From: Elusimicrobiota bacterium | GTDB taxonomy: Bacteria > Elusimicrobiota > Elusimicrobia > UBA1565 > UBA9628 | Reading direction: 5' to 3' | NCBI GenBank assembly: GCA_003151975.1 | Contig: PLZD01000044.1 | Span: forward strand, 1-46,264 | DNA length: 46,264 nt | In this document: in pieces, positions 7,550 through 41,561 of the stretch | How the letters are laid out: each line of letters opens with the position of its first letter | Numbering within the stretch: position 1 is the first letter of the stretch | Position numbers and translations under genes: made by a program | Notes under the pieces: model-generated | Seen by the model: the letters and a program-made list of their open reading frames with translations, nothing else | Told to the model about the DNA's origin: nothing | The model's database searches: none

Positions 7550-9163
7550 AGCTTTAATCTTCCCTCGGAGTAGGAGCAAGGTGGCGTCATCGGGAGAGGC
7601 TTGCAGTCCCTTTTTGAGGCTTTCCTGGGCGCCTTGGAAGTCCTTGACCGAGGCTAATATCTCTGCTTCTCGGCGATAGAAGTTCGCGGTGGCGGCGGGC
7701 CAGGACTTGAGTACGCGCTCGGCCTCCACCTTGACCGACAAGGCCTCGTGGGGCAGGGTCGGGAGCGCGTGCTGGCTCGTCTGCCGCGCGAGGTCGGCGG
7801 CTGCCTTCTGCAGGCCGGGGTCGTCTGGACAGGATCGCAGTCCCTTCTTGACGATTTCCTGCGCGCCTTCAAGATCGTTGACCGAGGTCAAGAACTTCGC
7901 CATGCGGCGGTAAACGCCGGCACGATCATCCGGCTCCGCGGCGGCGCGGGCCTGCGAGAGGGCTTCGTGGGTGCCCTTCGCGTCGCCCAGAGCAGCGCGA
8001 GCGGCGGCGAGATCGAAATAACCCTGCTCCAAAGCGGGGCGGACCTCGTAATAATATCTCCGTTCCCCCAGGCCGTTCGGCAGGCCCGCGCGGGGCAGCG
8101 CGCTCACGGCCTTGGCGACGGCCAGCGAGATGTAGTCGAGATCGTAGGCCCGCGCGAGGATGTTAGCGGCGCGCCGCTCGTCTCCCAGGCCTGACCAGAG
8201 GCGCGCCGCGATGAGGTAGGCGTCGAGCTGCTGCCAGGGCGGGGCGTCAAGCACCTCCTCTAGAAAGCCTTGGGCCGCCTCCTCGGCCTGCGCGCGCCGG
8301 CCTGCCGCCGCGTCGCGCTCGATGAGCCGGCGCATCGACTCGAGCTCGTCGTCTCCAGCGGCCTCCTCCGCGCCCGCATCGGCGGCCGAATCCGGCGCCT
8401 CCAAGGCCGCGGGATTGGTCTGGTGGATGCGGGCGAGCCCGTTCCAGGCCACGACGTCGTCCGGGTCCCATCGGACGGCGCGCCGCAGGCTCCGCGCGGC
8501 CTTCGCCGTATCTCCCAGCTCGAGCAAGCGCTGGGCGCAGAGGCGGTACGACGCGCCGCGGCGCCATACCGGCGCGCGTTCGGCCGCCCGAAGCGCTCCC
8601 GCGGCGGCCTCCTCCGCCTCCCGCTTGTCGGCCGCGGCGGCGGCCAAGGCCAACCACGCTTCTAGATCGTCAGGATCTCCCTTCAGCTCCCGGCGCAAGG
8701 CTTTTCTCGCGCCGGCGTCGTCGCCTAGTTCTTCCAGCAGGATCCCTTCGAGCCCGGCGTCCCGCGCGCCGCGCGCGTAGACCAGGGCCTCCTCGGGCCG
8801 ATCTCGAGTGAGCCGCGCCAGAGCCCGCAGCGTCGCCTGATCGCCGGGGACGAGGGCGAGCGCTTTCTTGAGCTCGATCTCGGACTCGCGGAGGTCGCCG
8901 AGGGCCGCGCGCACGCGGGCGGCCCGGCGCAAGGCCAAGGCCCGCTCGTCGGCGGAGATGCCGGGGAGCCCCGCCGCCGTCTCGGCTGAGGCCGCCGCCT
9001 GGCCGAACAGGACGTCGGCGAGCTCGTCGCGGTAGCGTGCCTGAAGACCGTCAAAGCTGACGGCGTCGCCCGAGGGGACTTGCGGCGAGGTCTGCGACCC
9101 CCCGAAGGACGCCGTCAGCGCAATGATCCCGGCGGCTAGGCGAAGGGACCTAGTGCAAAGCAA
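7541..9163 (-). CDS. Exported TPR-repeat protein
   Basis: A 540-residue protein with a signal peptide (hydrophobic residues 7-20) followed by helical repeats over most of its length. The repeats have the TPR pattern of small and aromatic residues (for example around ALVPGDQATLRALARL, GDPDDLEAWLALAAA and WDPDDVVAWNGLARI). The C-terminal third repeats a block that ends SVNDLEGAQEIVKKGLRSCP and SVKDFQGAQESLKKGLQASP. The start is a TTG at 9163, which overlaps the end of the TRAP gene by 14 nt and implies coupling. A TPR protein next to a TRAP-type binding protein recalls the TatT/TatP pair of treponemal TPR-associated TRAP transporters. It could instead serve the neighbouring polysaccharide locus as an AlgK-like periplasmic scaffold. 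Sequence does not decide between them. Confidence 0.75.
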   Translation of the reverse strand: MLCTRSLRLAAGIIALTASFGGSQTSPQVPSGDAVSFDGLQARYRDELADVLFGQAAASAETAAGLPGISADERALALRRAARVRAALGDLRESEIELKKALALVPGDQATLRALARLTRDRPEEALVYARGARDAGLEGILLEELGDDAGARKALRRELKGDPDDLEAWLALAAAAADKREAEEAAAGALRAAERAPVWRRGASYRLCAQRLLELGDTAKAARSLRRAVRWDPDDVVAWNGLARIHQTNPAALEAPDSAADAGAEEAAGDDELESMRRLIERDAAAGRRAQAEEAAQGFLEEVLDAPPWQQLDAYLIAARLWSGLGDERRAANILARAYDLDYISLAVAKAVSALPRAGLPNGLGERRYYYEVRPALEQGYFDLAAARAALGDAKGTHEALSQARAAAEPDDRAGVYRRMAKFLTSVNDLEGAQEIVKKGLRSCPDDPGLQKAAADLARQTSQHALPTLPHEALSVKVEAERVLKSWPAATANFYRREAEILASVKDFQGAQESLKKGLQASPDDATLLLLRGKIKATP

Positions 9164-10211
9164 TCTTGTCCGGGATCAGCGGTTCCGGCTCGCCGTCCGC
9201 AGCGCTCTTGACCTTTTTGACGAAGCCCTTGCCGAGCAGGCCGTTGATCTTCTCGTACGCCGGCGCCAGCGCCGCGACGAAGGCCTTCTTCCCGGCGGCG
9301 CTCAAGTACACGGGCTTAACGCCTTTGGAGATCATTCCGAGCATCGAGTCCTGATTGAGCTTGATCGTCTTGGCGCGCTCGAGGCGTCCGGCCCTGCGCG
9401 ATTCCTCGACGATGAGCTTCTGGAACTCCTTCGGCAGGCTCGCGAAGAACTTGTCGTTGACGTAGGTCACGCTGACAAGGTACGTGGAGCCCGGCATATT
9501 GAAGTACTTGAAGGTGCGGTCGAGGTCGGTGCGCTGAAAGTTGCGCCAAGTGATGACGACCGCGTCCAGCTCGCCTTGCGAGGCGAGCAAGTTGATCTTG
9601 TCGAGGTCGTGGGCGATGGCCACGGGCTTGGCGCCGAGGCTCTCGAGCCAGGCCGCGTTGACCGCGTCTCCGTAGACGCCGACCTTCATGCCCTTGAGGT
9701 CCTCGGGCTTGCGGATCGGGCGGCTCAAGCTGGCCACGCCGTTGGCGCCGCCGCTGTAGGTGAACGAGAGCCCAGTCAGATGGTGGGCGCTCATGTCGTC
9801 AAGCAAGTTCTGCCCAACGGGCCCGTCGAGCACGCCCTCCATGTGCGTGTAGTCGCGCATCAAGTACGGGGCCTCGAACACGTTCATGCGGGGATCGAGG
9901 GGGGCCACGACGTCCGTGAAGGAGTGGCCCATCTGGGCCTCGCCGCGGGCGACCTTGCCGGCGATCTCCGGGGCCTCGGGTGCCGCGTCAGACGACTCGG
10001 GCACGATGTCCACGGCGATCCTGCCTTCGCTGCGCATCTCGACGGCCTTCTTGAAGTTGGTCGCGGCCTCCTCGAAGAAGTCCAAGTTCTTGTGGCCGAG
10101 CAGCCACTGGATCCGGTACTGCGGCCCGGCCTTCTTGGCGTCCGCCGCGTTTGCTAAGCCCGCCTGAGCGACGAGCGCCATCGATACTGCGAGCGTTAGA
10201 GCCCTCATCAT
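9150..10211 (-). CDS. TRAP-type periplasmic solute-binding protein (DctP family), orphan
   Basis: The 353-residue protein has a signal peptide ending near ANAADA and a full DctP-family fold. Typical blocks are GHSFTDVVAPLDPRMNVFEAPYL, RPIRKPEDLKGMKVGVYGD, the LASQGELDAVVITWRNFQ hinge region and YVNDKFFASLPKEFQKLIVEESR. It should capture an organic anion or similar ligand in the periplasm. A strong GGAGGAGGAG precedes the double ATG at 10211/10208. No DctQ/DctM membrane subunits lie in the window, so the partner permease is elsewhere or absent. The gene is followed without a gap by the TPR gene, and preceded by the small remnant ORF and its promoter. Confidence 0.88.
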   Translation of the reverse strand: MMRALTLAVSMALVAQAGLANAADAKKAGPQYRIQWLLGHKNLDFFEEAATNFKKAVEMRSEGRIAVDIVPESSDAAPEAPEIAGKVARGEAQMGHSFTDVVAPLDPRMNVFEAPYLMRDYTHMEGVLDGPVGQNLLDDMSAHHLTGLSFTYSGGANGVASLSRPIRKPEDLKGMKVGVYGDAVNAAWLESLGAKPVAIAHDLDKINLLASQGELDAVVITWRNFQRTDLDRTFKYFNMPGSTYLVSVTYVNDKFFASLPKEFQKLIVEESRRAGRLERAKTIKLNQDSMLGMISKGVKPVYLSAAGKKAFVAALAPAYEKINGLLGKGFVKKVKSAADGEPEPLIPDKIALH

Positions 10212-10247
10212 ATCTCCTCCTCCCTTTGCGTCATGCGATCGATCAAG

Positions 10248-10253
10248 ATCTTA
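10248..10253 (-). promoter_or_regulatory. Possible proximal -10 box for dctP
   Basis: On the minus strand GC-TAAGAT overlaps the stop codon of the small remnant frame. It resembles other -10 boxes of the window (GC-TAAAAT, GC-TAGAAT) and would give a leader of about 30 nt carrying the strong Shine-Dalgarno of dctP. No -35 is evident. Confidence 0.3.
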
Positions 10254-10367
10254 GCGCGCGACGCGGAAGTAGGAGGGATGGTACGCGTCCTGCACCCACT
10301 CGGCGGCGTTGCCTAAGGCTGGGACTATCGAAAGGCCGTGACGAAATCCCTTTTGGATCATTGTCAT
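10251..10367 (-). pseudogene. 38-codon remnant resembling a formylglycine-generating-enzyme (SUMF1) segment
   Basis: A short minus-strand frame runs from ATG (10367; a second ATG is at 10361) to TAA (10253-10251). Its second half reads GNAAEWVQDAYHPSY, closely like the GNVWEWVQDxYHxSY segment that marks SUMF1/FGE-type proteins, and then stops a few residues later. The family is normally 250 residues or more, so this is a fragment. It sits 39 nt upstream of dctP and directly downstream of a good promoter, so it may still be transcribed as a leader peptide ahead of dctP. It could also be a genuine micro-ORF with a chance resemblance. Confidence 0.45.
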
Positions 10368-10383
10368 TTATTCCCTGATTGGG

Positions 10384-10412
10384 AGTGTAACAGGAATTCG
10401 GCTAGTGCGCAA
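10384..10412 (-). promoter_or_regulatory. Promoter of the remnant ORF-dctP-TPR unit
   Basis: On the minus strand TTGCGC (10412-10407) is followed after exactly 17 nt by TACACT (10389-10384), which is itself preceded by TG in the extended -10 position. The predicted transcript starts about 12 nt before the small frame at 10367. The remaining bases of the 349-nt stretch 10212-10560 hold the remnant frame, this promoter and the plus-strand promoter at 10526. Confidence 0.6.
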
Positions 10413-10525
10413 TAGGACAGTACGACAGTCTTTTTCCCCCGCCTGTCATTTCGTTTTAAAAATGGACTCGAAGACGTCGAGGATCTTGCCGCCGCGCGTG
10501 AGGACGTTGCGCCGCGCCAAGCCCG

Positions 10526-10554
10526 TTGACGGCGGCGGCTTCAAGGGCTACACT
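10526..10554 (+). promoter_or_regulatory. Promoter for leaderless transcript at 10561
   Basis: TTGACG (10526-10531), 17 nt, TACACT (10549-10554), then 6 nt to a GTG. This spacing puts the transcription start at or next to the start codon, and no Shine-Dalgarno is present. It is the clearest example of the leaderless arrangement in this window, and it fixes the start of the following gene downstream of longer in-frame candidates. Confidence 0.7.
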
Positions 10555-10560
10555 CAACTC

Positions 10561-11328
10561 GTGACCGAGGAACCGCTGCGCTACGCCGTGCTGATCGGAA
10601 AGCCCGAGGATCTCAAGCCCGTGGAGCTTGCGCGCGCGCTGGCCCGGCACAAGAAGGTCCCCGAGCACGACCTCGCCGGCGCCGCGAAGCGCTGCTGGGG
10701 CATCGTCGAAGAGGACGCCTCGGAGGCCGCCGCCAAGGAGCTCGCCGGAGCGCTTACGGCCGCGAAGATCTCGGCGCTGGCGGTGCCCAAGACCTTGCTC
10801 GAGGAACTGCCGCCGGCCGCGAAGGCGCCGCTGCTTGCGCCCTTCAAGCCGGAACGGCTGAAGCTTCTCGCGGCGGCGGGCTTCAAGGAAACGACGATGC
10901 GCACCGTCACGACCACCGAGGGCCCCGACCCGACCCAGCGGGCCATCGGCCTCGGCATCACGATGATGACGGGGATGCCGACGGGCATCGGCAAGGCCAA
11001 GAAGGAGGTTCAAAAAAATGTCGAAAGCACCGAGCTCGTGTTTTTCTTGGATCTCGTCCTATCCGATCCCATGGAGCGCCTGCGCATCGACGCGCAAGAT
11101 TTCGATTTCTCCTGCCTCGGCGCCAAGAAGGGCTACAGCGCGATCGTCAACTTCCGTCAGCTGCTCTACGACCTGTCAGACGCCTCGCGCGGCGCCGTAC
11201 GCAATCGCGGCACGACCATCCTGCTCGAGCAGCGGCCCGTGCGCGAGATGGGCTATGAGTCGCTCTCCGACCTCGACCGGGAATCGCGCTGGCTTTTGAC
11301 TCTGTCGTCGCTCAAGCGCGGAGCGTGA
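10561..11328 (+). CDS. Conserved-looking cytoplasmic protein with an L7/L12-like N-terminal segment
   Basis: The 255-residue product has no signal peptide or membrane helix. The GTG at 10561 is chosen over the upstream ATG at 10405 because a promoter ends 6 nt before it and the upstream codons contain that promoter. Residues about 7-70 (RYAVLIGKPEDLKPVELARALAR ... WGIVEEDASEAAAKELAGALTAAKISALAVP) resemble the alternating helix/strand layout of the ribosomal L7/L12 C-terminal fold. The second half (about 150-255) is unrecognised and contains a charged segment with SDPMERLRIDAQDFDFSCLG. The similarity is by pattern only; I assign no function. Lytic transglycosylase follows 30 nt later with its own promoter. 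Confidence 0.7.
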   Translation: MTEEPLRYAVLIGKPEDLKPVELARALARHKKVPEHDLAGAAKRCWGIVEEDASEAAAKELAGALTAAKISALAVPKTLLEELPPAAKAPLLAPFKPERLKLLAAAGFKETTMRTVTTTEGPDPTQRAIGLGITMMTGMPTGIGKAKKEVQKNVESTELVFFLDLVLSDPMERLRIDAQDFDFSCLGAKKGYSAIVNFRQLLYDLSDASRGAVRNRGTTILLEQRPVREMGYESLSDLDRESRWLLTLSSLKRGA

Positions 11329-11342
11329 AACCGGCGTTCCTG

Positions 11343-11351
11343 TGCTAGAAT
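11343..11351 (+). promoter_or_regulatory. Extended -10 for leaderless mltB-like gene
   Basis: TGC-TAGAAT with the hexamer at 11346-11351, 7 nt before the GTG start at 11359. There is no Shine-Dalgarno and no convincing -35, as expected for an extended -10 promoter. Confidence 0.55.
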
Positions 11352-11358
11352 AAGCGCT

Positions 11359-12291
11359 GTGAACTCACCGCGCCTGCTGATCGCGCTTCTCTTGCTGCCG
11401 TCGCTGGCGAGACCGCAAGCCGTCATGGGCGACGCGGCGTTCTTCCGCGAACTCGGCGTGCTCAACGAGGGCGTGCAGGCCGACATCAAGGGCTCGCTCG
11501 TCGTCAAGAAAAACTCCGGCGAGCTGGCCAAGGACGACGCCGTGCGCATGGTGCTCGCGCATCTCAAAGGCTCCGGCGTGCCCGAGAGCTACGCGCGCGC
11601 CGCCTTCGACGATCCCGCGGTCAAGCTCTACCCCGACATCCCAGGCAAGTTCAAGCCCGGCGGCAACGCCGGGGCGACGCCGTACGATCAGTACCGCAAG
11701 TATTTCATGACGGAGGACCGGATTCAGGCGGGCGTCGATTTCTTCCGCGCGCATCGCGAGCTGTTGGCGCAAGCGGAGCAAGCTTACGGCGTCGATGCCG
11801 GTATTCTCACGGGGCTTCTCGGCGTCGAGACCGCCTACGGCACGCGGACCGGGACCTACATGGTTTTCTCGGCGCTCTACACGATCACGCTCAAGGTTCC
11901 CTCAAGGACCGACTGGGCCGCCAACGAGCTCGCCGAGTGGCTCAAGCTCTGCTACCGCCAGCGCATCGCGCCGCACTCCGTCAAAGGCTCGTATGCGGGC
12001 GCCTTCGGCTTCTTTCAGTTCATGCCGTCGTCCTTCAACCGCTTCGCGGTCGACTTCGACGGCGACGGGCGCATCTCCTTCGACGAGTGGCCCAACGTCG
12101 TGGGCAGCGTCGCCAATTATCTCGCTCTGGCGGGCTGGCAGCGCGGCGGCAGCCTCGACAAGCCCGCGAAGAACTACTACGCGATCTTCGCCTACAATCA
12201 CTCCGACAATTACGTCCGCGTGATCGTGGAATTGCGCGGCGAGATCATGCGGCGGCTGGCGCCTGCGCCCGCCGTGCCGGCCCAAAGCTAG
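11359..12291 (+). CDS. mltB: Lytic murein transglycosylase, MltB family (SLT_2)
   Basis: The 310-residue exported protein cleaves the MurNAc-GlcNAc bond of peptidoglycan with formation of an anhydro product. A signal peptide ends near residue 20. Family landmarks are GLLGVETAYG with the catalytic Glu at 157, the SYAGAFGFFQFMPSSFNRFAV block, a calcium-binding DFDGDGRISFDEW loop, and VGSVANYLALAGW followed by the AIFAYNHSDNYVRVI C-terminus. No lipobox is present, so it is probably soluble in the periplasm rather than a lipoprotein like E. coli MltB. The start is GTG in a leaderless context. Its stop codon overlaps that of the convergent gene by 4 nt in a CTAG palindrome. Confidence 0.92.
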   Translation: MNSPRLLIALLLLPSLARPQAVMGDAAFFRELGVLNEGVQADIKGSLVVKKNSGELAKDDAVRMVLAHLKGSGVPESYARAAFDDPAVKLYPDIPGKFKPGGNAGATPYDQYRKYFMTEDRIQAGVDFFRAHRELLAQAEQAYGVDAGILTGLLGVETAYGTRTGTYMVFSALYTITLKVPSRTDWAANELAEWLKLCYRQRIAPHSVKGSYAGAFGFFQFMPSSFNRFAVDFDGDGRISFDEWPNVVGSVANYLALAGWQRGGSLDKPAKNYYAIFAYNHSDNYVRVIVELRGEIMRRLAPAPAVPAQS

Positions 12292-13451
12292 GGCAGGTCC
12301 CGCTCGCAGGCCGTCCGGCTGAATTTGTCCTTGGAACCCTTGTCGATCGTGACCTGCCAGCCGGCGCAGCAGGAGCCGTCGGCGGGGCACTCCGAGCTTG
12401 AGAACCGGCCCGCATCGGCGGACTTGATCTTCTTGTCGCCGAGCCAAGCCTTCAGCTCGGGCAGCGCGGCGATTTTCTCGATGGCTTCCAGCTTGAACGC
12501 GCGTCGCTCGCCGCCGGCGATGCCGAGATAGAAATTCGGCTGCTCCGAGGAGCGCACGAAGCGCTCTTGCGCGGAGGATTTGAAGCCGGAAGTGGCCTGG
12601 TCCCAGGCGGATTGCAGGGCGGCGAGGTTCGCGCGCCACTGCTCGAAGCTCGCTTTTTGATAGGAATCCTTGATCGCGGCGCCGAGCACGTGGTCGACGA
12701 CGAACGGCTCTTCCTCCATCGCGATGATGACCGGCTTGCGGTGATGCTTCTGCAGAGCCTGCTCGATGACGGGCCGGCCCGGATAGATCTTGCCCCACGA
12801 AAGATCGGAATCTTTCAGCGTCTCGATAATGTAGTCGCGCATGCGCGCCGAGGTGTGCGCCGCGCCCGTGTAAGTGATCAAGATCTTCGGGCCCGCGGCT
12901 TTGAGGCCGGCCTTGACGTCGTCGCCGGGATTGAACTGGTCCTTCATCAAAGTCACGGCGACATGGGCGGCGACCAAAGGCTCGGTGTAGGGGAAGATGC
13001 CGTACGGCTCGCCGGGCTTGGTGTTCTTGCCGCTGCCGACGACGACCGAGGTCGCCTCCTGAAGAAAATCTCCGACGGAGACGCCGCCGTCGAGAATCGC
13101 GCCGACAATCGATTGCGCGGCTTTCTGCTCGGTCGGATTGCTGTGCGATTCACCGAGTTCGACGGCGTCGTATGTCCCTTGCCTGAGTCCTGCGACGATC
13201 TCCCGCGAGAGGGCGGCCGCGTCCATGGCGTTCTGCTGTTCGGCCTGACCGTACCAGCTGAATTGCGCGCCGAGAAGACGCAAGTATTTATCGACGAGCT
13301 GATGCTCGGCGATTTGGGCGGCCGCGCGCTGAATGGGTTGGATTTGAATCTGGGCCGCGTCCTGGGCGAAGGCCGCCTCTCCGGACATCTGCGCGCGGGC
13401 CGTGAGAGAGAACGACATCAGAAGGAGCAAAAGCAGGGTTGTGATTCGCAT
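12288..13451 (-). CDS. Exported protein with a GESH motif (ChaN/erythromycin-esterase-like), function unknown
   Basis: The 387-residue product has a clear signal peptide (to about residue 20, ARAQ). Around residue 97 it carries VELGESHSNPTEQKAAQSIV, and later ITYTGAAHTSARMRDYI. The Gly-Glu-x-His motif near a predicted strand and the later Ala-His are the hallmarks of the ChaN/TraB/EreA superfamily, whose members bind haem or act as hydrolases with Glu/His residues. The C-terminal 60 residues contain four Cys (SECPADGSCCAGW and ACERDLP), likely disulphides. The assignment to the superfamily is tentative and no substrate can be named. TATAAT ends 6 nt before its ATG. Confidence 0.6.
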   Translation of the reverse strand: MRITTLLLLLLMSFSLTARAQMSGEAAFAQDAAQIQIQPIQRAAAQIAEHQLVDKYLRLLGAQFSWYGQAEQQNAMDAAALSREIVAGLRQGTYDAVELGESHSNPTEQKAAQSIVGAILDGGVSVGDFLQEATSVVVGSGKNTKPGEPYGIFPYTEPLVAAHVAVTLMKDQFNPGDDVKAGLKAAGPKILITYTGAAHTSARMRDYIIETLKDSDLSWGKIYPGRPVIEQALQKHHRKPVIIAMEEEPFVVDHVLGAAIKDSYQKASFEQWRANLAALQSAWDQATSGFKSSAQERFVRSSEQPNFYLGIAGGERRAFKLEAIEKIAALPELKAWLGDKKIKSADAGRFSSSECPADGSCCAGWQVTIDKGSKDKFSRTACERDLP

Positions 13452-24898: not shown

Positions 24899-26047
24899 AT
24901 GGTCATATTGCTCGTGTTCGCGTCGTTCGTCCTATTCGTCGTGGCCGATATCGCCGTGCGCTCCGTCGCGCGTTCGATGCATGAGAAAAGGCTGCGCAAG
25001 GAACGCGCCGAGGTCCTGGCCGTCAGCCTGAAGCTCGACTTCACGCGCGAGGCCAAGTCGCTCAAGCGCGCGGAGGTCAAGGAGCCCGCCGCCCGAATCC
25101 TCTGCGTCGACGATGAGAAAGTGATCCTCGACAGCTTCCGCAAGATCCTCGTGCTCGACGGATATTGCGTCGACACTGTCGAGACCGGGCAAGAGGCGCT
25201 AGGCTTGGTCCAGGCGCGCAATTACGATTTCGTCTTCACCGACCTGAAGATGCCGTCCATGGACGGCGTGGACGTCGTCAAGTCGGTCAAGCACATGCGG
25301 CCGGACGTCGACGTGATCGTCATCACGGGCTACGCCACGGTCGAGAGCGCGGTCGAGTGCATGAAGTTCGGCGCGATGGACTACGTCCAGAAGCCGTTCA
25401 CGGAGGATGAACTGCTCGCGTTCACGAAAAAGGCGCTCATTAAGCGCCGGGACCGCATCCAGAAGCAGCTCAAGCCGAAGGTTCACATCACCGCGCTGCC
25501 GAAGGAGGAGACGATGCCGGCGGGCGAGTTCTTGATCCCGGGCGGAGTGCTGATCTCGAAGGGGCACTGCTGGGCGAGCATGAGCCAGGACGGCTCGGTG
25601 AAGGTCGGTCTCGACGACTTCGCCAAAAAGATCATCGGTCATATCGACGACATAGAACTGCCGAACGTCGGCATGACCGTCAAGGCGGGCCAGCCGCTCT
25701 TCACGGTGCGTCAGAAGGGCCGCCGCGTCCAATTCTCGGCCCCGGTCGGCGGGCAGATCGTCAAGGTAAACGCCGCGCTCGGGGCGGACGGCGACGCCCT
25801 GGAGGTGACGCCGTACCAGAAGAACTGGACCTGCGTCATCGACGCGGATAATCTCGACAAGGACCTTCCGGCGCTCAAAATAGGCAAGTCGGCCGTGTCT
25901 CTCTTCGAGGACGACATCGACCATTTTCGGCGCATCATGCGCGACCTCGCCAAGCAGGGCGACGACGGCCAGGCGCACGTCGGCGACCTCGAACAGCTCG
26001 ACGAAACGCAGTGGGAGCGCGTCGTGGGGGAATTCTTCCGGCGCTAG
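24899..26047 (+). CDS. Membrane-tethered response regulator with a GcvH-like C-terminal domain
   Basis: The 382-residue protein opens with a membrane helix (about 2-22) and a basic helix, then a receiver (about 65-185) with DDE at 71-73, phosphoacceptor Asp 115 (FTDLKMP), Thr 143 and Lys 165 (QKPF). Residues about 210-345 again have a GcvH-like course: SKGHCWASMSQDGSVKVGLDDFAKKIIG, VGMTVKAGQPLFTV, FSAPVGGQIVKVN. At the lipoyl-lysine position it has Gly 274; a Lys lies one residue earlier, outside the usual type-I beta-turn. A short helical tail follows. The start ATG 24899 has an AAAGGAGA Shine-Dalgarno. It is the second receiver of the redox operon, and the two could share one kinase or form a relay at the membrane. 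Confidence 0.88.
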   Translation: MVILLVFASFVLFVVADIAVRSVARSMHEKRLRKERAEVLAVSLKLDFTREAKSLKRAEVKEPAARILCVDDEKVILDSFRKILVLDGYCVDTVETGQEALGLVQARNYDFVFTDLKMPSMDGVDVVKSVKHMRPDVDVIVITGYATVESAVECMKFGAMDYVQKPFTEDELLAFTKKALIKRRDRIQKQLKPKVHITALPKEETMPAGEFLIPGGVLISKGHCWASMSQDGSVKVGLDDFAKKIIGHIDDIELPNVGMTVKAGQPLFTVRQKGRRVQFSAPVGGQIVKVNAALGADGDALEVTPYQKNWTCVIDADNLDKDLPALKIGKSAVSLFEDDIDHFRRIMRDLAKQGDDGQAHVGDLEQLDETQWERVVGEFFRR

Positions 26048-29965: not shown

Positions 29966-32515
29966 ATGAGCGACACCAAGAGCTTCGCAGCAATCAAGCG
30001 AGTTTTCGCGGTCCTTCTTTGTCTCGCGGTTTCCGCCGGCGCTCCCGGCTCCTCGGCCTTCGCCGCCCTTTCCGAAATCAACGCCAAGATCGTCACGCTT
30101 CCCATCGGAGCCGTCGTGCCGGTGATGCCGACCGCCAACATCCGCACGCTCGGCACCACGGGCATCCCCGAACTCCCGATCGTCAACGAGGGGCCGGTCA
30201 ACGAGCCGCGCCTGATTCCTTCCATTCTCGAGGCCGCCGGCGTCGTCAATATTCCCGAAGCCGTCCTGCAGGCGCTTCAGCCGGAGGCTGGAGCGCAGGC
30301 TCATCTTGAATCGGCGGTGACATCCGCCGCGTCTCTGGAGCGCTCGGGCAAGAGCCCGTCCGGCGGCGCCGCTCCTTCCGCTGCCGAAATTAAAGAACAG
30401 CAGGACCAGGTTTACTCGGGCAGCGCCGTCTCCGGCGACTCGTCCGCGGCCGCTCCCGTTTCCGGCAACTACATGGAGAGCTCGCCCGCGCTGCCTTTGC
30501 CCAAGCTCAAGCCGAGCTGGCGCGAGTCGCAGGCGCCGTCGTCTCCCGACCTTAAGTACCGCTCCGACGCTAAGGGCCTCAAAGACATCGGCGATGAGAG
30601 CGCGCTGTCCGTCAAGGAAACGCTCAAGCCCGAGTCGGTCCCGAACGCTTTCAAGGACATCACGCCGGACAACGAGTCGCTCAGCTACGGCAAGCGCCTC
30701 TACATGGAAGTCCGCAACGGCCTGAAGGAAGCCCGCATGGTCGGCGGACGCGTGGCCTGGACCGACGCCGAGGGCAAGCTCAACCTCTACGACCCGAAGT
30801 CCGACGAGACCAAGGTCATCGCGGCGCCGATGGGCGCCATCGAGAAGTTCGTCTCGAGCCCGCACTCCGAAACACTGTACGTCATCGCCGGCGGCCACCT
30901 GCAGCGGTGGGATTTGAGCGACAACAAGGCCGTCGTCCTGCTCGACGACAAGGTCAACGAGCTGGGCATCCACGATTTCTCCGCCTTGCGCTCCTCCGAG
31001 GACGGCATCGAGATCAAGACCGACAAGGGCGATCTTTTCTGGACCCATCATAAGGTCTCGTTGTTCGAGGGCGGCCCGGGCGAAGTCGTCGCCGACCAAG
31101 GTGTCGCACCCACGCTCAAGCAGTCGGGCGAATTCTACATCGAGCAGACGGCTTCCGGTTCCCGGATCTGGCGCAACACCTTGAGCGGCTCGGGCTCGCC
31201 GGTCACCGACCTGGGCACCTTGCCCTTCGAGGTCAAGGCGGTCTCGGCCGACCAGGGCCGCGACACGATCTACGCGGTGACCGAGCAGGGCATCGTCGAA
31301 TGGGACGTCGCGGGACGGCGCTTCCGGCTGTTTGAAATCGACGGTCTGAAGAAAGCGACTCTCGGCCGGAACGTGACGCTGGACCTCAGCCTCAACGGCC
31401 GCAACGCGCTCGTGGCCGCGGGCGACAAGATCTTCCACATCGATTTCGGCGATTCGACGCGCGACGCCGAGTCGAACGAAAGCAAGGTCCGCGCTTGGTC
31501 TGAAGAGAATCCGATGACGATCAAGGACGGCGTGCTCTCCATCGGCGGCTTCACCTTCCCCGTGCAGAGCCGCCAGCCCGAGGTCGTGACGCGCTCCTTG
31601 TGGCAGCGCTTCGTCGACTTCGTCCTGCGCCGCACGCCGGCCGCGCCCAAGAACGACGGACTCGCGCTGAGCCAGGAAGATTGGCAGGCGGTCAATCTCC
31701 CGACCAACAAGTGGGCGATCTACCAGACTTTGAAGGGCTTCACGCTCGGCCAGCACGTGCTCTACATCGGCGAGACGGGCGGCGGCAAGACTTGGATGTC
31801 GGAAAAGCTCGCCAAGCTCATCGGCCGCAAGCTCTACATGGTTTCTTTCACGGAGTATACTAAGAACCAGGACCTGCTCTTCGCCCGCACCTTCGGCGAG
31901 GAAGGCAAGAACAAGACCGGCAAGACCTTCGAGACGGTGCTCCAGTGGCTCAACGACCCGCAGGGCGGCATTCTGCTGCTCGACGAGATGCACAAACCTC
32001 TCGAGGGCATCGCGGCGCTCAACAACATCCTGCAGAACCTCAAGTACCACATGGCCGGCAAGGACATCGTTGGAAATAAGAAGACGCACTTCGTCATCGG
32101 CACGATGAACCCCGTCAAGCCGCCTTATAAAGGAGAGCCTCCCTCGGGTGAGCTGTCCTCCCGCTTCGGCGTGACCCTCGAGGTGAATTACCTCCCGCGC
32201 GCCGAGGAAGCAGCACTCCTGAAAATATTCTACCCCGGCGTTAAGCAGGAAGTCGCCAAGCGGCTCGTCGACATCGCCAACGACCTGCGCAAGGTCTACC
32301 CCGACCTGCTGCCTCTGCCGGTCGCGCCCCGCACCTTGCTCCAGATCGTGGCCAAGCTCGTGGCCTTCCCGCACGATGATCCCATCGAAGCTTTTAAGAC
32401 GACGTATAATCCGGCTTCGATAGTTCAGGACCCCTCGATCATCGAGGCGATCGCGAAGGCGCTCGCCGCCCACGACCTCGCGGGCGCGGTCAACCCCGGC
32501 CAAAAAAAAAAGTAA
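29966..32515 (+). CDS. MoxR-type AAA+ ATPase with signal peptide and N-terminal propeller-like region
   Basis: The 849-residue protein has a good Shine-Dalgarno (AGGGAGA) and then a signal-peptide-like N-terminus (basic FAAIKR, hydrophobic VFAVLLCLAV, cleavage near AFA-AL). Residues about 45-230 are low-complexity. Residues about 235-510 form repeated short strands (RVAWTDAEGKLNLYDP, TLYVIAGGHLQRWDL, TIYAVTEQGIVEWDV), like a beta-propeller. Residues about 565-849 are a MoxR/CbbQ-like AAA+ module: Walker A GETGGGKT (602-609), Walker B ILLLDE (669-674), sensor-1 HFVIGTMNP and arginine-finger-type ELSSRFG. An AAA+ domain behind an export signal is exceptional. The gene ends CAA AAA AAA AAG TAA, and the -1 frame continues openly into the VWA gene. 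Confidence 0.85.
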   Translation: MSDTKSFAAIKRVFAVLLCLAVSAGAPGSSAFAALSEINAKIVTLPIGAVVPVMPTANIRTLGTTGIPELPIVNEGPVNEPRLIPSILEAAGVVNIPEAVLQALQPEAGAQAHLESAVTSAASLERSGKSPSGGAAPSAAEIKEQQDQVYSGSAVSGDSSAAAPVSGNYMESSPALPLPKLKPSWRESQAPSSPDLKYRSDAKGLKDIGDESALSVKETLKPESVPNAFKDITPDNESLSYGKRLYMEVRNGLKEARMVGGRVAWTDAEGKLNLYDPKSDETKVIAAPMGAIEKFVSSPHSETLYVIAGGHLQRWDLSDNKAVVLLDDKVNELGIHDFSALRSSEDGIEIKTDKGDLFWTHHKVSLFEGGPGEVVADQGVAPTLKQSGEFYIEQTASGSRIWRNTLSGSGSPVTDLGTLPFEVKAVSADQGRDTIYAVTEQGIVEWDVAGRRFRLFEIDGLKKATLGRNVTLDLSLNGRNALVAAGDKIFHIDFGDSTRDAESNESKVRAWSEENPMTIKDGVLSIGGFTFPVQSRQPEVVTRSLWQRFVDFVLRRTPAAPKNDGLALSQEDWQAVNLPTNKWAIYQTLKGFTLGQHVLYIGETGGGKTWMSEKLAKLIGRKLYMVSFTEYTKNQDLLFARTFGEEGKNKTGKTFETVLQWLNDPQGGILLLDEMHKPLEGIAALNNILQNLKYHMAGKDIVGNKKTHFVIGTMNPVKPPYKGEPPSGELSSRFGVTLEVNYLPRAEEAALLKIFYPGVKQEVAKRLVDIANDLRKVYPDLLPLPVAPRTLLQIVAKLVAFPHDDPIEAFKTTYNPASIVQDPSIIEAIAKALAAHDLAGAVNPGQKKK
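32502..32515 (+). other. A10 slippery run (A AAA AAG) and stop: candidate -1 frameshift site
   Basis: Ten consecutive A (32502-32511) precede G. In the zero frame this contains A AAA AAG (32506-32512), the same heptamer that E. coli dnaX uses for -1 frameshifting, followed at once by TAA. A -1 slip continues through GTA ACT GAC into the reading frame of the VWA protein with no stop, giving a fusion of about 1553 residues. Transcriptional slippage on A10 or an assembly indel (11 A) would have the same effect. Confidence 0.65.
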
Positions 32516-32532
32516 CTGACGGCGCGGCATCC

Positions 32533-32579
32533 GAGGCCCCCAAGACCGAGGCTCCTTCGAGCCCGGAGCAGGGGGCCTT
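32533..32579 (+). other. Stem-loop just downstream of the slippery run
   Basis: GAGGCCCCC (32533-32541) can pair with GGGGGCCTT (32571-32579) over 9 bp including one G-U. Inside it GGCTC-CTTC-GAGCC (32550-32563) forms a 5-bp hairpin. The structure begins 20 nt after the slippery heptamer, longer than usual for bacterial -1 sites, and lies ahead of the ATG at 32593. It could stimulate frameshifting or block an independent start. Confidence 0.5.
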
Positions 32580-32592
32580 CGATTTTGATCCG

Positions 32593-34626
32593 ATGATCAA
32601 GCCGGTCAACCCGGTCCATCGGGCGCTGGCCGACGCCGTTGAGCAGGCCGGCCTCACCGGCGATCGTTCTTTGCTGTTTCCGATGACGTTCAACACGCCC
32701 AACGGCGCTCAGGCCTCCGAGGGGCCGCAGGGGAACACGGGCTGGGCCAAGGTGCTCGAACAGTTCGTGCGCCTGCTGACCGGCTACACGCCGATGCGCT
32801 TCACTCCGTTCTACGTGCTCAAGAAGCACGGCGAGACGGAAGAGAACACGCCGCCGCGCTGGCGCACGATCCTGGGGCTCGAGGAGATCCAATATCTTCC
32901 CGAGGACGTCAACGACCCGGACAAGAACGTCTCGTTGGGCAAGACCGCCCACGAGATCTGGCACGTCCTCTTCAGCCGGCCCGAAATCATCTTCGACGAG
33001 CCCGCGCTCATCAAGAACATGGCCTTCCAGGCGCTCTGGTGGGCCATCGAGGACCCGCGCGTCAACATCCAGGGAGTCAAACGCCACCCCGGCGCCCAGG
33101 AATGGATCGACGCCGCGATGAAGAAGGACTACGAGATCAAGGACCTCGCCGCCGAGCAGAAGCGCTGGACCGAGGAGATCCCGCTGCACCTGCAGTTCAA
33201 TTACGCGTTGATCTACGAGTGGTGGTCCGGGCAGCCCGACCCGCGCGTCACCGACGAGCGCGTCAAGGAAGCGCTGGCCGAGGCCGCCGATCCGATCCGC
33301 CGCGCCTACTCCACCGGGGACGCGCGCAAGAGCTTCAAGATCATCCGCGACGAAGTCTGGCCCATCTACAAGAAGCTCGTTGACGAGTCATACCAGGACC
33401 AGCAGGACAAGCAACAAGGCGACGGCGAGAGCGAGGATCAGGACCAACAGGGTCAGGAAAGCGATCAGGATTCGGATAGTCAATCCAGCTCCTCGAGCCA
33501 GCAACAGGGAAAACAAGGCAAGCCAGGCAAGCAAGGCAAGCAGCAGAAGAAGCCGCAGAAGCCCGTCTCCGACAAGGTCAAGGAACAGATGGAGAAGAAG
33601 GAGAAGGAGTTCCGCGACAAGCACGCCAGTAAGGTCGTCGACAAGCCCGAGAAGATGAGCGAGAAGGAAAAGCAGGACGCCAAGAAGGATCTCGAGCGCA
33701 TGCGCAAGAAGATGGGCCAGAAGCAGGACGGCGACAAGCAGCAAGGCGAGCCGCAGGACGGCCAGCAGGGCCAGCCGCAGGACGGTGACGGCGACGGCGA
33801 CAAGTCGGGCGAGATGACGCAGCAGCAGAAGCAGGAGCAGCGCGAGCGTCTGAGCAAGCCCGACACGCGCGAAGAGACCGACTCGAAGGACGAGGCCGAA
33901 TACAAGGACTACTTCAGCAAGGTCCGCCACCTGGTTCCGGTCATGAAGGCGCAGTTCCAGCAGGTCATGCGCCGCAAGATCCGCCGGCGCTTCCTGCACG
34001 AGCGCAAATCCGGCGATCTCGATGAGGACGCGATCAGCGAGATCCCCAGCGGACGCTCCGACGTTTTCGAGGAGAGCATGATCGCCAACAAGACGCTTTA
34101 TCGCGTCTCCTTACTGATCGACGTCAGCGGCAGCATGAGCGGCGAAAAGAAGGAGCACTCGATTCTGGCCGCGGTCATGATGATGGAGGCGCTCGACAAG
34201 CTGCCCGGCGTGTCGTACGAGATCGTGCGCTTCGACGACAAGCCGCAGGTGGTCAAATCCTACAACGAGCGCACGACGCAAGCGATGAAGGTCGCGGTGG
34301 TCAAGGCGTTATTAAAGAACGGCGGCAGCACGCAATCTGACCTCGCCGTGCGCGAGGCCATCCAGCGCATCCGCATGGGCCGCGGCGACAAGCTCATGAT
34401 GATGATGAACGACGGCGACCCCGACAACAACTTCGACCGCGAGGCGTACCGGCAGATGATCCTCGCCGCCAAGGACATCGAGATCCACGGACTCGGCCTT
34501 GGGCCGGAGGCGCAGCTCGTCATCGATCTCTTCCCGAAGGGACGCGGCTGGTGGCTCAACGACGTGACGGAATGCGCCAAGCGCATCCGCGAAATCTTGA
34601 AAAAGAAGTTCCTCGGCGGAACTTGA
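32593..34626 (+). CDS. Metallopeptidase-like/VWA-domain protein, partner of the AAA+ ATPase
   Basis: Counted from the ATG at 32593 the product has 677 residues. However, the frame is open upstream to the A10 run, with protein-like Ala/Pro/Glu/Ser codons and no start codon or near Shine-Dalgarno. Residues about 20-250 fit the putative metallopeptidase domain found N-terminal of VWA-like domains (DUF2201-type), with HEIWH at 120-124. Residues about 270-440 are a very polar Gln/Asp/Lys-rich linker. Residues about 505-677 are a VWA domain with MIDAS DVSGSMS (510-516), then NGGSTQSDLAV and MNDGDPD. Such proteins pair with MoxR ATPases in metal-insertion or assembly chaperoning. It has no signal peptide, unlike its partner, which favours synthesis as a fusion. 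Confidence 0.88.
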   Translation: MIKPVNPVHRALADAVEQAGLTGDRSLLFPMTFNTPNGAQASEGPQGNTGWAKVLEQFVRLLTGYTPMRFTPFYVLKKHGETEENTPPRWRTILGLEEIQYLPEDVNDPDKNVSLGKTAHEIWHVLFSRPEIIFDEPALIKNMAFQALWWAIEDPRVNIQGVKRHPGAQEWIDAAMKKDYEIKDLAAEQKRWTEEIPLHLQFNYALIYEWWSGQPDPRVTDERVKEALAEAADPIRRAYSTGDARKSFKIIRDEVWPIYKKLVDESYQDQQDKQQGDGESEDQDQQGQESDQDSDSQSSSSSQQQGKQGKPGKQGKQQKKPQKPVSDKVKEQMEKKEKEFRDKHASKVVDKPEKMSEKEKQDAKKDLERMRKKMGQKQDGDKQQGEPQDGQQGQPQDGDGDGDKSGEMTQQQKQEQRERLSKPDTREETDSKDEAEYKDYFSKVRHLVPVMKAQFQQVMRRKIRRRFLHERKSGDLDEDAISEIPSGRSDVFEESMIANKTLYRVSLLIDVSGSMSGEKKEHSILAAVMMMEALDKLPGVSYEIVRFDDKPQVVKSYNERTTQAMKVAVVKALLKNGGSTQSDLAVREAIQRIRMGRGDKLMMMMNDGDPDNNFDREAYRQMILAAKDIEIHGLGLGPEAQLVIDLFPKGRGWWLNDVTECAKRIREILKKKFLGGT

Positions 34627-38558: not shown

Positions 38559-40292
38559 CTAGCCCTTGAGGCTCTTGAGCGAGTCCAGCAGTTCCGCGGC
38601 GGTGGCCACGCGCTTCTTGGGGTCGGGATTGAGCGTCGCGATGAAGAGGAGCTCCGCTTCTCTCGGAAGCTCGGGCGCGAGGAATTGCGGCGGCGTGTAC
38701 TTCATGCGCTCCTTCTGCGCGAGGAAATCGGGGCCCGGAAACGGCAGTTTGCCCGTCATCGACTCGTAGAGGCACACGCCCAGCGCGTAGATGTCGGAGG
38801 CCTTGGCGCACTTGCCCAGATGCTGCTCGGGCGCCATGTACCACGGAGTGCCCGCGGTGTCGGCGTGGGTCAGGCGCGTGATCGTCTCCTTGGCCTCGCG
38901 CGCGATGCCGAAGTCCATGACCTTCGCGTAGCCCGCCTTGTCGACCATGATGTTGGCGGGCTTGAGGTCGCGATGCAGGACGTGGTTCTCGTGCGCGCAG
39001 GTGATGGCCTCGCAGACGTAGGTGTAGAGCGTCTGGGTTTCCTTGAGGGTCAGGCGCTTTTTCTCCCAGAGAATCTGCGAGAGCGGCTTGCCGTCGACGA
39101 AGTCGAAGACGAGATAGACCTCGCCTTTCTCCTCGACGACGTCGTGGAACGCGACGATGTAAGGATGGCTGAGGTGCGAGATGATGCGCGCCTCGCTGAG
39201 GAACGCGGCGACCTCCTCGGGGAACTCCTTGAGCTCGGCGCGCATCTGCTTGATGGCCACGCGCCGGCCGAGCGAATGATCAAAGCCGTCGTAGACGATG
39301 CCCATGCCGCCGATGCCTATCTTGCCGCGCAGCTCGAAGCGGCCTTTGAGCAGCCCCGGCTTCAACGCGACGCCGGGACTTGCGGTGAAGGGCGCGGGCT
39401 CGGCGGGAACCGCCGTGGCACGAGGCTCGGGCGGGGCCGACGTCGAGCCCGACTGAGTGAGATCGGTGTTCGCGTAGACCGTGTCGCGCTTGGGCTTGGC
39501 CCACTGTGATGCCAGATAAAATCCGCCGCCGGCTCCGCCCAACGCCGTTAACAGCGCCAGAGCGATCCAGAACGCCGGGACGCCTCCGCCGCTCGAGCGG
39601 GCAGGCTCGGGCCTGGGTTTCTCTTGGACCACGACCCAACCCGTGTTGTCGGTGTCCTTCGAATGGTCGGGGCCGCTCAAGGGAGGCGCCACGGCGTCGT
39701 GCTTCTCGATGTGGGATGAAGCGGCTTCCTGCGCTTGGATCAGCATCTGGTTACCGGGAGCCAACTGGAGCCCGTTGCTGGCGTCCTGCACGGCCTGCTT
39801 GTAGTTCCCGAGAGAATTGTTCGCGGACGCGCGCACGAGGTAAGCGTTGGCGGACGGGCCCGCCTCGAGGGATTCCGTCGCCAGGCGCGCGGCTAAAGTC
39901 GCGTTGCCGGCTAGCAGGGCCTCCTCGGCTTTGGCCAGCTTGTCGTCTTCGGCAGGCTGCACCGTTCCCTCGGTCAGCGCTTGGAAGCCGAGCTTGACGA
40001 CGCTGCCGTCGGGCTTGACCTCGATGGGATAGGCGCTGTAGGGATCGGCGTTGGGATCGTCGGGCACGACTTGGCCGTTTTTCAACCGCAGCAATCGCTC
40101 GGGCTGGTATTTGTGGTCTCCGAGATCGCGCCAAACGAGGCCCGTGGGCGGCGGGGGCACCTTGTCGGAGAAGTGGGAGGATTCGGGGCACATGATCGGC
40201 GTGGGATCGCCGCCTTCCTCGGGATAAAAGCATTGCGCGCCGGCGTTCGCGGCGCAAAAGAACACGAACCAGACGAGAAGGCTCCTGGCCAT
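38559..40292 (-). CDS. Receptor-like Ser/Thr protein kinase with exported N-terminal TPR domain
   Basis: Counted from the ATG at 40292 the protein has 577 residues. Signal peptide 1-20; periplasmic part with a TPR-like segment (about 117-190); a Pro-rich stretch; membrane helix about 240-262; cytoplasmic Hanks kinase 315-577 with GxGGMG loop (326-331), catalytic Lys 348, HRDLKPAN (440-447), DFG (460-462) and TAGTPWYMAPEQ. Most bacterial Hanks kinases are the other way round, with the kinase at the N-terminus. A longer upstream reading frame is a shadow of the divergent gene. TTGCCA-17-TATACT ends 6 nt before the ATG. The aldo/keto reductase gene follows in the same unit. Confidence 0.9.
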   Translation of the reverse strand: MARSLLVWFVFFCAANAGAQCFYPEEGGDPTPIMCPESSHFSDKVPPPPTGLVWRDLGDHKYQPERLLRLKNGQVVPDDPNADPYSAYPIEVKPDGSVVKLGFQALTEGTVQPAEDDKLAKAEEALLAGNATLAARLATESLEAGPSANAYLVRASANNSLGNYKQAVQDASNGLQLAPGNQMLIQAQEAASSHIEKHDAVAPPLSGPDHSKDTDNTGWVVVQEKPRPEPARSSGGGVPAFWIALALLTALGGAGGGFYLASQWAKPKRDTVYANTDLTQSGSTSAPPEPRATAVPAEPAPFTASPGVALKPGLLKGRFELRGKIGIGGMGIVYDGFDHSLGRRVAIKQMRAELKEFPEEVAAFLSEARIISHLSHPYIVAFHDVVEEKGEVYLVFDFVDGKPLSQILWEKKRLTLKETQTLYTYVCEAITCAHENHVLHRDLKPANIMVDKAGYAKVMDFGIAREAKETITRLTHADTAGTPWYMAPEQHLGKCAKASDIYALGVCLYESMTGKLPFPGPDFLAQKERMKYTPPQFLAPELPREAELLFIATLNPDPKKRVATAAELLDSLKSLKG

Positions 40293-40298
40293 GCCGTG

Positions 40299-40327
40299 AG
40301 TATAACAGCCGTGGGCGTCCTTGGCAA
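40299..40327 (-). promoter_or_regulatory. Promoter for leaderless kinase transcript
   Basis: On the minus strand TTGCCA (40327-40322), 17 nt, TATACT (40304-40299), then 6 nt to the ATG at 40292. There is no Shine-Dalgarno. Confidence 0.72.
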
Positions 40328-40335
40328 GATTGGCC

Positions 40336-40364
40336 TTGACGCGCGGGCGTTTTCCGGCGAAACT
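40336..40364 (+). promoter_or_regulatory. Promoter for leaderless MFS transcript
   Basis: TTGACG (40336-40341), 17 nt, GAAACT (40359-40364), then 6 nt to the ATG at 40371. It lies back to back with the kinase promoter in a 78-nt divergent region. Confidence 0.55.
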
Positions 40365-40370
40365 TCCCGG

Positions 40371-41561
40371 ATGCGCAAGTTCCTCGCGAGCGTATGGGAT
40401 GCCGCGGCGTTTCGGCAGAGCCGCCCCGTTCTGATGACGACCTTCACCAACCGCGTCGGCTCGATCGGTCTGAGCCTCGTGCCGATCCTGCTGGTGAAGA
40501 AGGGAGTCACCACGGGGGAAGGCGCGTTCGTGCTCTCGACTTTGAAGGCGACGATACTCGTCGGAACCTTGGCCGGCGGGGCGCTCTCCGACCGTTTCCC
40601 TTCGCGCACGCTGGTCCTGTGCGCTTTCCTGATGTCGGCCTGCGGGCTTGGGCTCCTGCCCTTCCAACACGCGGTGCTGATGATCCTCTTTTTCGGGATA
40701 CTCGCCCAGCTCGCCGAGGCCATGCTCAACGTCGCGCAGCGGACCTTGCTGATGGGGCAGGTCGAGGTCGTCTATCAAAAGGAAGCGCTGGGCTGGCTCC
40801 GGATGGCTCACAACTTCGCGCAGATCTTCAGCTACGGCATCGCGGCGGCGGCCTCGTCGTTCGGCGTGATGCCGCTGATGGTCTTCGACTCGGCGACGTC
40901 GATCGCGGCCTTCTTGATGGGACGCAAGTTCTTGCCCCGCGACGCCCCGGAAGCCGCGGGCCGCCGCTTCGGCGGCGGCGAGGGCTCGCCCTCCTCGCGG
41001 ACGGCCTTTTTCGGATTGGCCGCGGTCTTGCTCGGCTGGATGTTCTTCTACGAGCTGTTCCTCGAGGGGGGCTCGGGACGGCTCGAGGTCCTGCATCCCG
41101 GCGAGGGGCTGCGGCGATTCTCATCGATGATGATCCTTAACACGATCTTGTGCGCGGCGTTCTCCGTGCGCGCGTCGCGTTTCTTCGAGCGGTCGTGGGC
41201 CGCGATCGCGGGCGGCGTCGTGCTGACGGCGGCGGGCATACTCGTCGCGGTTTGGGGAATGGCCTCGCAGCTCTGGGTCTTCTCGGGCATGGTGCTGATC
41301 ACCTCCGGCGAGCTTATGCTCGCGGCGGTAGCGCAATATACTTTGATGCGCCTGACGCCCGGGCATAAGAACGCGGGTTTCTATTACTCGATGGGTCTGA
41401 TGCTGATGCAGTGCGGCCGGATTCTGGGCGCGACCTTGGCGTTCCCTCTGCTGATCCATGCCCAGAGCCTCGTGGGTTTTACGAGCCTCATTTGCGGAGT
41501 GCTCGTGGTCTTGCTCGCCATTCTCTACTCCCTGAAGGCCCAAATCTCTCAGCTAGGCTGA
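40371..41561 (+). CDS. MFS-type membrane transporter
   Basis: From the ATG at 40371 the product has 396 residues and about 12 hydrophobic helices in two halves separated by a cytoplasmic loop (RDAPEAAGRRFGGGEGS). The first half has the MFS loop signature GGALSDRFPSRTLVL. The start is chosen because a promoter ends 6 nt upstream and the earlier in-frame part overlaps the kinase gene on the other strand. No transport substrate can be named; the divergent kinase may be unrelated. Confidence 0.85.
   Translation: MRKFLASVWDAAAFRQSRPVLMTTFTNRVGSIGLSLVPILLVKKGVTTGEGAFVLSTLKATILVGTLAGGALSDRFPSRTLVLCAFLMSACGLGLLPFQHAVLMILFFGILAQLAEAMLNVAQRTLLMGQVEVVYQKEALGWLRMAHNFAQIFSYGIAAAASSFGVMPLMVFDSATSIAAFLMGRKFLPRDAPEAAGRRFGGGEGSPSSRTAFFGLAAVLLGWMFFYELFLEGGSGRLEVLHPGEGLRRFSSMMILNTILCAAFSVRASRFFERSWAAIAGGVVLTAAGILVAVWGMASQLWVFSGMVLITSGELMLAAVAQYTLMRLTPGHKNAGFYYSMGLMLMQCGRILGATLAFPLLIHAQSLVGFTSLICGVLVVLLAILYSLKAQISQLG

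What the first reader, a model, noticed from the sequence alone, without database searches (positions are those of the whole stretch)
32480..32600. Possible -1 frameshift fusing an exported AAA+ ATPase to its VWA/metallopeptidase partner
The AAA+ gene ends in ten A with the zero-frame heptamer A AAA AAG directly before TAA. The -1 frame is open from there through 26 protein-like codons into the VWA gene. That gene has no start codon between the run and ATG 32593 and no near Shine-Dalgarno. A 9-bp stem with inner hairpin lies just downstream. The AAA+ part has an export signal and the VWA part has none, so a fusion would send both to one compartment. Two products (849 and about 1553 residues) could be made in a set ratio, as for dnaX.
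Basis: partly seen in the sequence, partly recalled or inferred. Interest (0 to 1): 0.85.

Follow-up and report, generated by a model that had tools for sequence, protein, structure and literature searches.

The report
Poly-A slippage site in AAA–VWA gene
In an uncultured Elusimicrobiota bacterium, one gene for an exported motor protein breaks frame at the genome's only run of ten A's, so copying slips there could let it make both a motor-only protein and a motor joined to its partner, two products that several related bacteria encode in separate gene copies; a one-base assembly error is not excluded.

Summary
The AAA+ ORF (29966-32515) ends CAA AAA AAA AAG TAA, and the -1 frame runs open into the VWA ORF, whose first start codon lies 78 nt beyond the stop. 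A codon-usage model, untold of the run, switches frame at 32512/32513. The five Elusimicrobiota relatives whose assembly spans the junction have one continuous AAA–VWA frame, without an A-run. Four relatives also carry stand-alone AAA copies; this genome has one AAA copy. So the VWA part belongs in a fusion. The run is the only A10 in 4.64 Mb and defies the gene's codon preference (AAG for 91% of lysines), so an error of one base could not have made it. Both non-fusion frames stop at once (TAA, TGA). This matches Thermus dnaX (transcriptional slippage) and fs-chlD, where one gene yields AAA-only and AAA–VWA subunits. Two tRNA-Lys (UUU, CUU) make the A_AAA_AAG ribosomal slip the less likely route, though a strong downstream structure (z about -3.6) resembles its stimulators. 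A miscounted A (true A11) is not excluded and needs reads, but an A11 run should slip as well. Verdict: most likely a slippage-expressed gene, a new variant of a known kind; unproven.

The parts
29966..32515 (+). AAA+ ORF, 849 aa: Sec-type signal (about 1-34), beta-propeller-like region, AAA_5/CbbQ-like AAA+ domain (about 595-841), ends GQKKK*
32502..32511 (+). A10 run, slippage site; only run of ten or more A/T in the genome
32506..32512 (+). zero-frame heptamer A AAA AAG
32513..32515 (+). TAA, zero-frame stop (A10 reading)
32517..32519 (+). TGA, stop of the third frame (A9/A12 reading)
32520..32592 (+). stable RNA structure starting 7 nt after the heptamer, with 9-bp stem and inner hairpin
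32512..32592 (+). 27 linker codons in the VWA frame (VTDGAASEAPKTEAPSSPEQGAFDFDP), coding-like
32593..34626 (+). rest of VWA frame (first ATG 32593): HExxH region, disordered Q/G/D-rich linker, C-terminal VWA/MIDAS domain

Best explanation
29966-34626 is one gene for an exported AAA+–VWA protein with a poly-A slippage site at the domain junction. RNA polymerase (and to a lesser degree the ribosome) slips on the A10 run. Transcripts with one extra A (or two fewer) read through into the VWA frame and give the 1553-residue fusion; transcripts in either other frame stop within three codons and give the 849-residue AAA-only protein. The two products would mix in one ring; in cytosolic relatives of this kind of machine such a ring has six AAA+ subunits and one VWA partner. 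Shown: the run, the frames, the immediate stops, fused homologues, stand-alone AAA copies in relatives, two Lys tRNAs, the downstream structure. Inferred: that slippage happens in this cell, its rate, that both products are used, and that they co-assemble.
For: Frame switch exactly at the run. Continuous AAA–VWA frame in the five relatives that span the junction. Stand-alone AAA copies ending at the same place in G036, G011, G031, G041, and tandem copies with their own signals, while G000 has a single copy. Run unique in the genome and against codon use: Lys is AAG in 112 of 123 codons of this gene pair, and eight of nine other Lys runs of the VWA ORF are all AAG, so no one-base error can have created it. 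Both non-fusion frames stop at once, 1 of 6769 positions. Strong downstream structure. Both tRNA-Lys present, the situation that a review links to the use of transcriptional slippage by Thermus dnaX, which has A9 and gives about 50% short product (PMC5009743, PMC1088944). Poly-A sites of Mg-chelatase fs-genes shift 63, 40 and 10% with 11, 9 and 7 A in E. coli (PMC3711429), and fs-chlD makes small and medium subunits from one gene (PMC9227772). CbbQ6CbbO1 stoichiometry (PMC4660213).
Against: The site is seen in one genome only; no relative of the same genus is held and the linkers of five fused relatives have no A or T run of five or more, so conservation cannot be shown. A one-base assembly error (true A11) would give the same picture apart from which product is the default. 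The slippage rate in Elusimicrobiota is unknown. G010 shows one AAA copy fused without a run, though its contig is cut at residue 527. The double-stop and structure statistics were noticed after the fact.
Confidence: 0.5

Rival explanations
1. Assembly or consensus error: the chromosome has A11 (or A8), and this is an ordinary continuous AAA–VWA fusion gene without any meaningful recoding.
For: All relatives assembled across the junction have one continuous frame; a single A restores it; ten-base homopolymers are where consensus counts fail; singleton frame breaks with fused homologues are expected by Antonov et al. to be mostly sequencing errors (PMC3711429).
Against: About 11 intragenic A8/T8 runs of this assembly all keep frame. 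The run itself cannot be produced by an error of one base, and a true A11 should slip in transcription too. Immediate stops in both other frames are not expected of an ordinary linker.
Confidence: 0.3
2. A real frameshift (fixed, or varying between cells as a hypermutable run) that splits or breaks the gene; the VWA ORF is silent or restarts poorly at ATG 32593.
For: Poly-A runs mutate fast; the only start is 78 nt past the stop without Shine-Dalgarno; single genome.
Against: Both ORFs are otherwise intact, with the AAA+ motifs and VWA/HExxH residues conserved; a restart product would lack the export signal.
Confidence: 0.14
3. Two separate genes with independent translation of the VWA protein from ATG 32593, as in the distant G005.
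For: In G005 VWA and AAA are separate genes.
Against: In G005 the VWA gene has its own signal peptide; here it has none. Codons upstream of the ATG are coding-like; the structure 32520-32592 runs up to the ATG.
Confidence: 0.06

Closest known systems
fs-chlD / magnesium-cobalt chelatase genes with poly-A frameshift (Antonov and co-workers; PMC3711429, PMC9227772)
   Same: AAA+ part, slippery AT-rich run plus downstream structure, then the VWA-type part; small and medium subunits from one gene; unshifted fused homologues exist
   Different: Chelatase family, no export signal known to me; this is a CbbQ/MoxR-like exported family with propeller and HExxH regions; here the shift is neither conserved nor tested
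Thermus thermophilus dnaX transcriptional slippage (PMC1088944, PMC5009743)
   Same: poly-A run, stops in both other frames nearby, two lysine tRNAs
   Different: There the DNA encodes the long product; here the DNA (as assembled) encodes the short one; slippage not measured here
E. coli dnaX -1 ribosomal frameshift
   Same: A AAA AAG heptamer, structure 3' of it
   Different: E. coli has a single tRNA-Lys and an upstream Shine-Dalgarno stimulator; here two tRNA-Lys and none
NorQ/NorD, CbbQ/CbbO, RavA/ViaA, and midasin (AAA ring plus VWA/MIDAS)
   Same: AAA_5/CbbQ-like AAA+ ATPase paired with a C-terminal VWA domain after a flexible linker; fold of the VWA closest to midasin MIDAS and NorD
   Different: Sec signal peptide, propeller, HExxH region, and fusion of AAA+ and VWA at the gene level

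Membership tests
Programmed -1 ribosomal frameshift (dnaX type) | X XXY YYZ slippery heptamer in the zero frame | tested here: met
   A AAA AAG at 32506-32512
Programmed -1 ribosomal frameshift (dnaX type) | 3' structure at a short spacer | tested here: met
   structure from 32520, z about -3.6, 2/394 coding windows; the strong 9-bp stem itself starts 20 nt downstream
Programmed -1 ribosomal frameshift (dnaX type) | upstream Shine-Dalgarno stimulator | tested here: not met
   GGTCAACCCCGGCC upstream of the run
Programmed -1 ribosomal frameshift (dnaX type) | slip-prone decoding of AAG by a sole tRNA-Lys(UUU) | tested here: not met
   tRNA-Lys ttt (L126) and ctt (L150); meaning from PMC5009743
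Programmed -1 ribosomal frameshift (dnaX type) | site conserved in relatives | tested here: not met
   no run of five or more A or T in five fused linkers; no same-genus genome held
Transcriptional slippage gene (Thermus dnaX type) | run of nine or more A in the coding strand | tested here: met
   A10, only one in the genome
Transcriptional slippage gene (Thermus dnaX type) | early stops in the frames that give the short product | tested here: met
   TAA and TGA within three codons
Transcriptional slippage gene (Thermus dnaX type) | heterogeneous run length in mRNA | not testable with these tools
   needs RNA reads
MoxR/CbbQ-type AAA+ ATPase | Walker A, Walker B, sensor 1, arginine finger | tested here: met
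   GETGGGKT, DE, TMNP, SSRFG invariant in seven copies; PF07728 56 bits; CbbQ_C just below its cut-off
VWA/MIDAS partner protein | DxSxS...T...D motif | tested here: met
   D538 S540 S542 T608 invariant, D635 invariant in the six-row alignment; PF00092 33 bits; fold hits MIDAS of midasin and NorD
Zinc metallopeptidase | HExxH and a peptidase family profile | tested here: inconclusive
   H148 E149 H152 invariant but no peptidase profile matched, and the model is of low confidence at HExxH
Mg/Co chelatase ChlI/ChlD | chelatase profile match | tested here: not met
   no Mg-chelatase match in Pfam or NCBIfam; CobT_C only below its cut-off

The most novel reading that the evidence does not exclude
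A lineage with a single gene copy uses a poly-A slippage site to make the AAA-only and AAA–VWA subunits that its relatives make from tandem duplicated genes, so setting the subunit ratio of an exported AAA+ ring by polymerase slippage.
Probability: 0.35. Interest if true: 0.75.

Novelty: new variant of a known kind. Interest (0 to 1): 0.55.

Why it matters
If true, it is an independent case, outside the chelatases, of an AAA+–VWA gene that yields ring subunits with and without the VWA partner from one reading unit, suggesting that recoding recurrently solves the 6:1 stoichiometry of AAA+/VWA machines. It also draws attention to a family of AAA+/VWA machines with Sec signals in Elusimicrobiota, odd because ATP is not expected outside the cytoplasm.

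Tried and rejected
Two ordinary adjacent genes: rejected as unlikely, because the coding signal starts at the run, the nearest start is 78 nt on, and the VWA part would lose its export signal. A AAA AAG ribosomal slip as the main route: demoted because of tRNA-Lys(CUU). General homopolymer errors in the assembly: about 11 intragenic A8/T8 runs intact (frame judged by codon score 210 nt to each side, about 28 distinct runs looked at), but no A10 control exists since the run is unique. A second slippage gene at T9 (C22, L189): ordinary gene end followed by a new gene. The genome-contig scan gave only the same six relatives; papers on Elusimicrobi* with MoxR and VWA: none in the library. The structure model of the VWA part was poor (mean pLDDT 52) outside the VWA domain and a helical region.

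Full report
WHAT IS THERE. The window is part of contig C59 of a 4.64 Mb genome whose relatives are named Elusimicrobia MAGs. The AAA+ ORF 29966-32515 ends ...GGC CAA AAA AAA AAG TAA; the run is A10 (32502-32511). The VWA ORF 32593-34626 lies in the -1 frame, which is open from 32410. No start codon of that frame lies between the run and ATG 32593, 78 nt beyond the stop, while the other seven same-strand gene junctions examined in the window have a start within 35 nt. A Viterbi pass with codon scores, told nothing of the run, switches frame at 32512/32513.

FUSION IS THE NORMAL STATE. Relatives at family and order level carry the AAA and VWA parts in one open frame: G010:C76 (1054 aa), G016:C71 (876), G036:C223 (912), G027:C11 (932), G039:C28 (795), all cut by the contig start. 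A sixth, G041:C6, is cut before the junction. The linker varies in length and sequence and has no A or T run of five or more. Thirteen of 341 phylum genomes have a VWA relative at E up to 1e-20. In the distant G005 the VWA part is a separate gene, and there it has its own signal peptide. In the window the VWA ORF alone has none, so only a fusion would put it where the AAA+ part goes.

STAND-ALONE AAA COPIES. Relatives have the signal–propeller–AAA unit several times, often in tandem, each complete copy with its own signal. Copies that stop just after the AAA domain occur in G036:C55 (TAG), G011:C37 (TAG), G031:C85 (TAA) and G041:C49 (TAA). G027 has two different copies. High identity of the AAA parts (91% within G036) probably explains why contigs break there. 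G000 has a single copy of this family; its two other matches are generic MoxR-like genes at E 4e-4 and 5e-4. So relatives make AAA-only and AAA–VWA proteins from separate genes, and the window's genome has one gene with a slippery run exactly between the two parts.

THE RUN IS NOT AN ORDINARY LYSINE STRETCH. It is the only A10 in the genome, against six other A9 places and about 60 A8 places; by that decline one A10 is not itself surprising. But lysine is AAG in 112 of 123 codons of this gene pair, and eight of nine other lysine runs in the VWA ORF are purely AAG. An error of one base cannot make a long A-run from AAG codons, so a run of about this length is real even if its exact count is not certain. 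Around the run both non-fusion frames stop at once: A10 gives ..KKK*, A9 or A12 gives ..SN*, while A11 or A8 gives the fusion. As fast a double stop occurs at 1 of 6769 codon positions; the marginal chances are 2.6% and 1.7%. These figures are after the fact, and the zero-frame stop is partly implied by the finding. The third-frame stop is independent of it.

RIBOSOME OR POLYMERASE. The heptamer A AAA AAG and a structure starting 7 nt downstream (-41 kcal/mol for 88 nt, z -3.5 to -3.7; 2 of 394 coding windows as extreme; stable for window lengths of 80-150, absent at 50-60) fit a -1 ribosomal site. Against it, the genome has tRNA-Lys with anticodons TTT and CTT and there is no upstream Shine-Dalgarno. 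A review of recoding links the sole tRNA-Lys of E. coli to its shift-prone dnaX site, and the two lysine tRNAs of Thermus to its use of polymerase slippage (PMC5009743). Thermus dnaX has A9 and makes about half short product (PMC1088944). I therefore rank transcriptional slippage first, with a ribosomal share possible.

PRECEDENT. Mg-chelatase genes have poly-A frame transitions with fused homologues, and shift 63, 40 and 10% with 11, 9 and 7 A when tested in E. coli (PMC3711429). In fs-chlD one gene yields small and medium chelatase subunits, with AT-rich slippery sites and downstream structures (PMC9227772); that these subunits are AAA+ and AAA+–VWA is established knowledge. The present protein is not a chelatase by profile. 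Its AAA domain matches AAA_5 and weakly CbbQ_C, with Walker A, Walker B, sensor 1 and arginine finger invariant. Its VWA fold is nearest to the midasin MIDAS domain and to NorD. CbbQ:CbbO is 6:1 (PMC4660213) and the NorD finger sits in the pore of a NorQ hexamer (PMC13036017), which gives a reason to make more AAA-only than fused subunits. That step is inference.

WHAT REMAINS OPEN. No reads, RNA or proteins could be examined, and no same-genus genome is held. About 11 intragenic A8/T8 runs keep frame, so the assembly is not grossly unreliable at homopolymers, but it gives no control at length ten. If the chromosome has A11, the fusion is the default product and slippage would give the short one; the two-product reading then survives, the frameshift reading does not.

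Noticed in passing
29966-32515 and loci L004, L005, L007, L009, L010, L029, L108, L113: A family of AAA+ ATPases with intact catalytic motifs carries conserved Sec-type signal peptides and, in the window copy, no other membrane helix; ATP is not expected outside the cytoplasm.
   Followed up: partly
L108 (G036:C55) 9123-12384: AAA copy 2 runs on without stop into copy 3, whose frame then changes near 11500; a tandem polyprotein, or an assembly or real frame break.
   Followed up: partly
L111 (G011:C3) 7840-7850: An AAA copy loses about 40 residues and changes frame inside the AAA domain; may be a repeat-driven assembly join or a broken copy.
   Followed up: no
L118 (G027:C16 36243-41625): About 4 kb of direct repeats, offset 1.37 kb, about 80% identical, upstream of the AAA gene.
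   Followed up: no
24899-26047: Response-regulator receiver joined to a glycine-cleavage-H-like domain.
   Followed up: no
38562-41096 (-): Serine/threonine protein kinase domain at the C-terminus of an 845-residue protein with a weak TPR match.
   Followed up: no
L178 (G216:C137): Single open frame of about 6184 residues holding VWA and two AAA parts after an N-terminal signal-like stretch.
   Followed up: no
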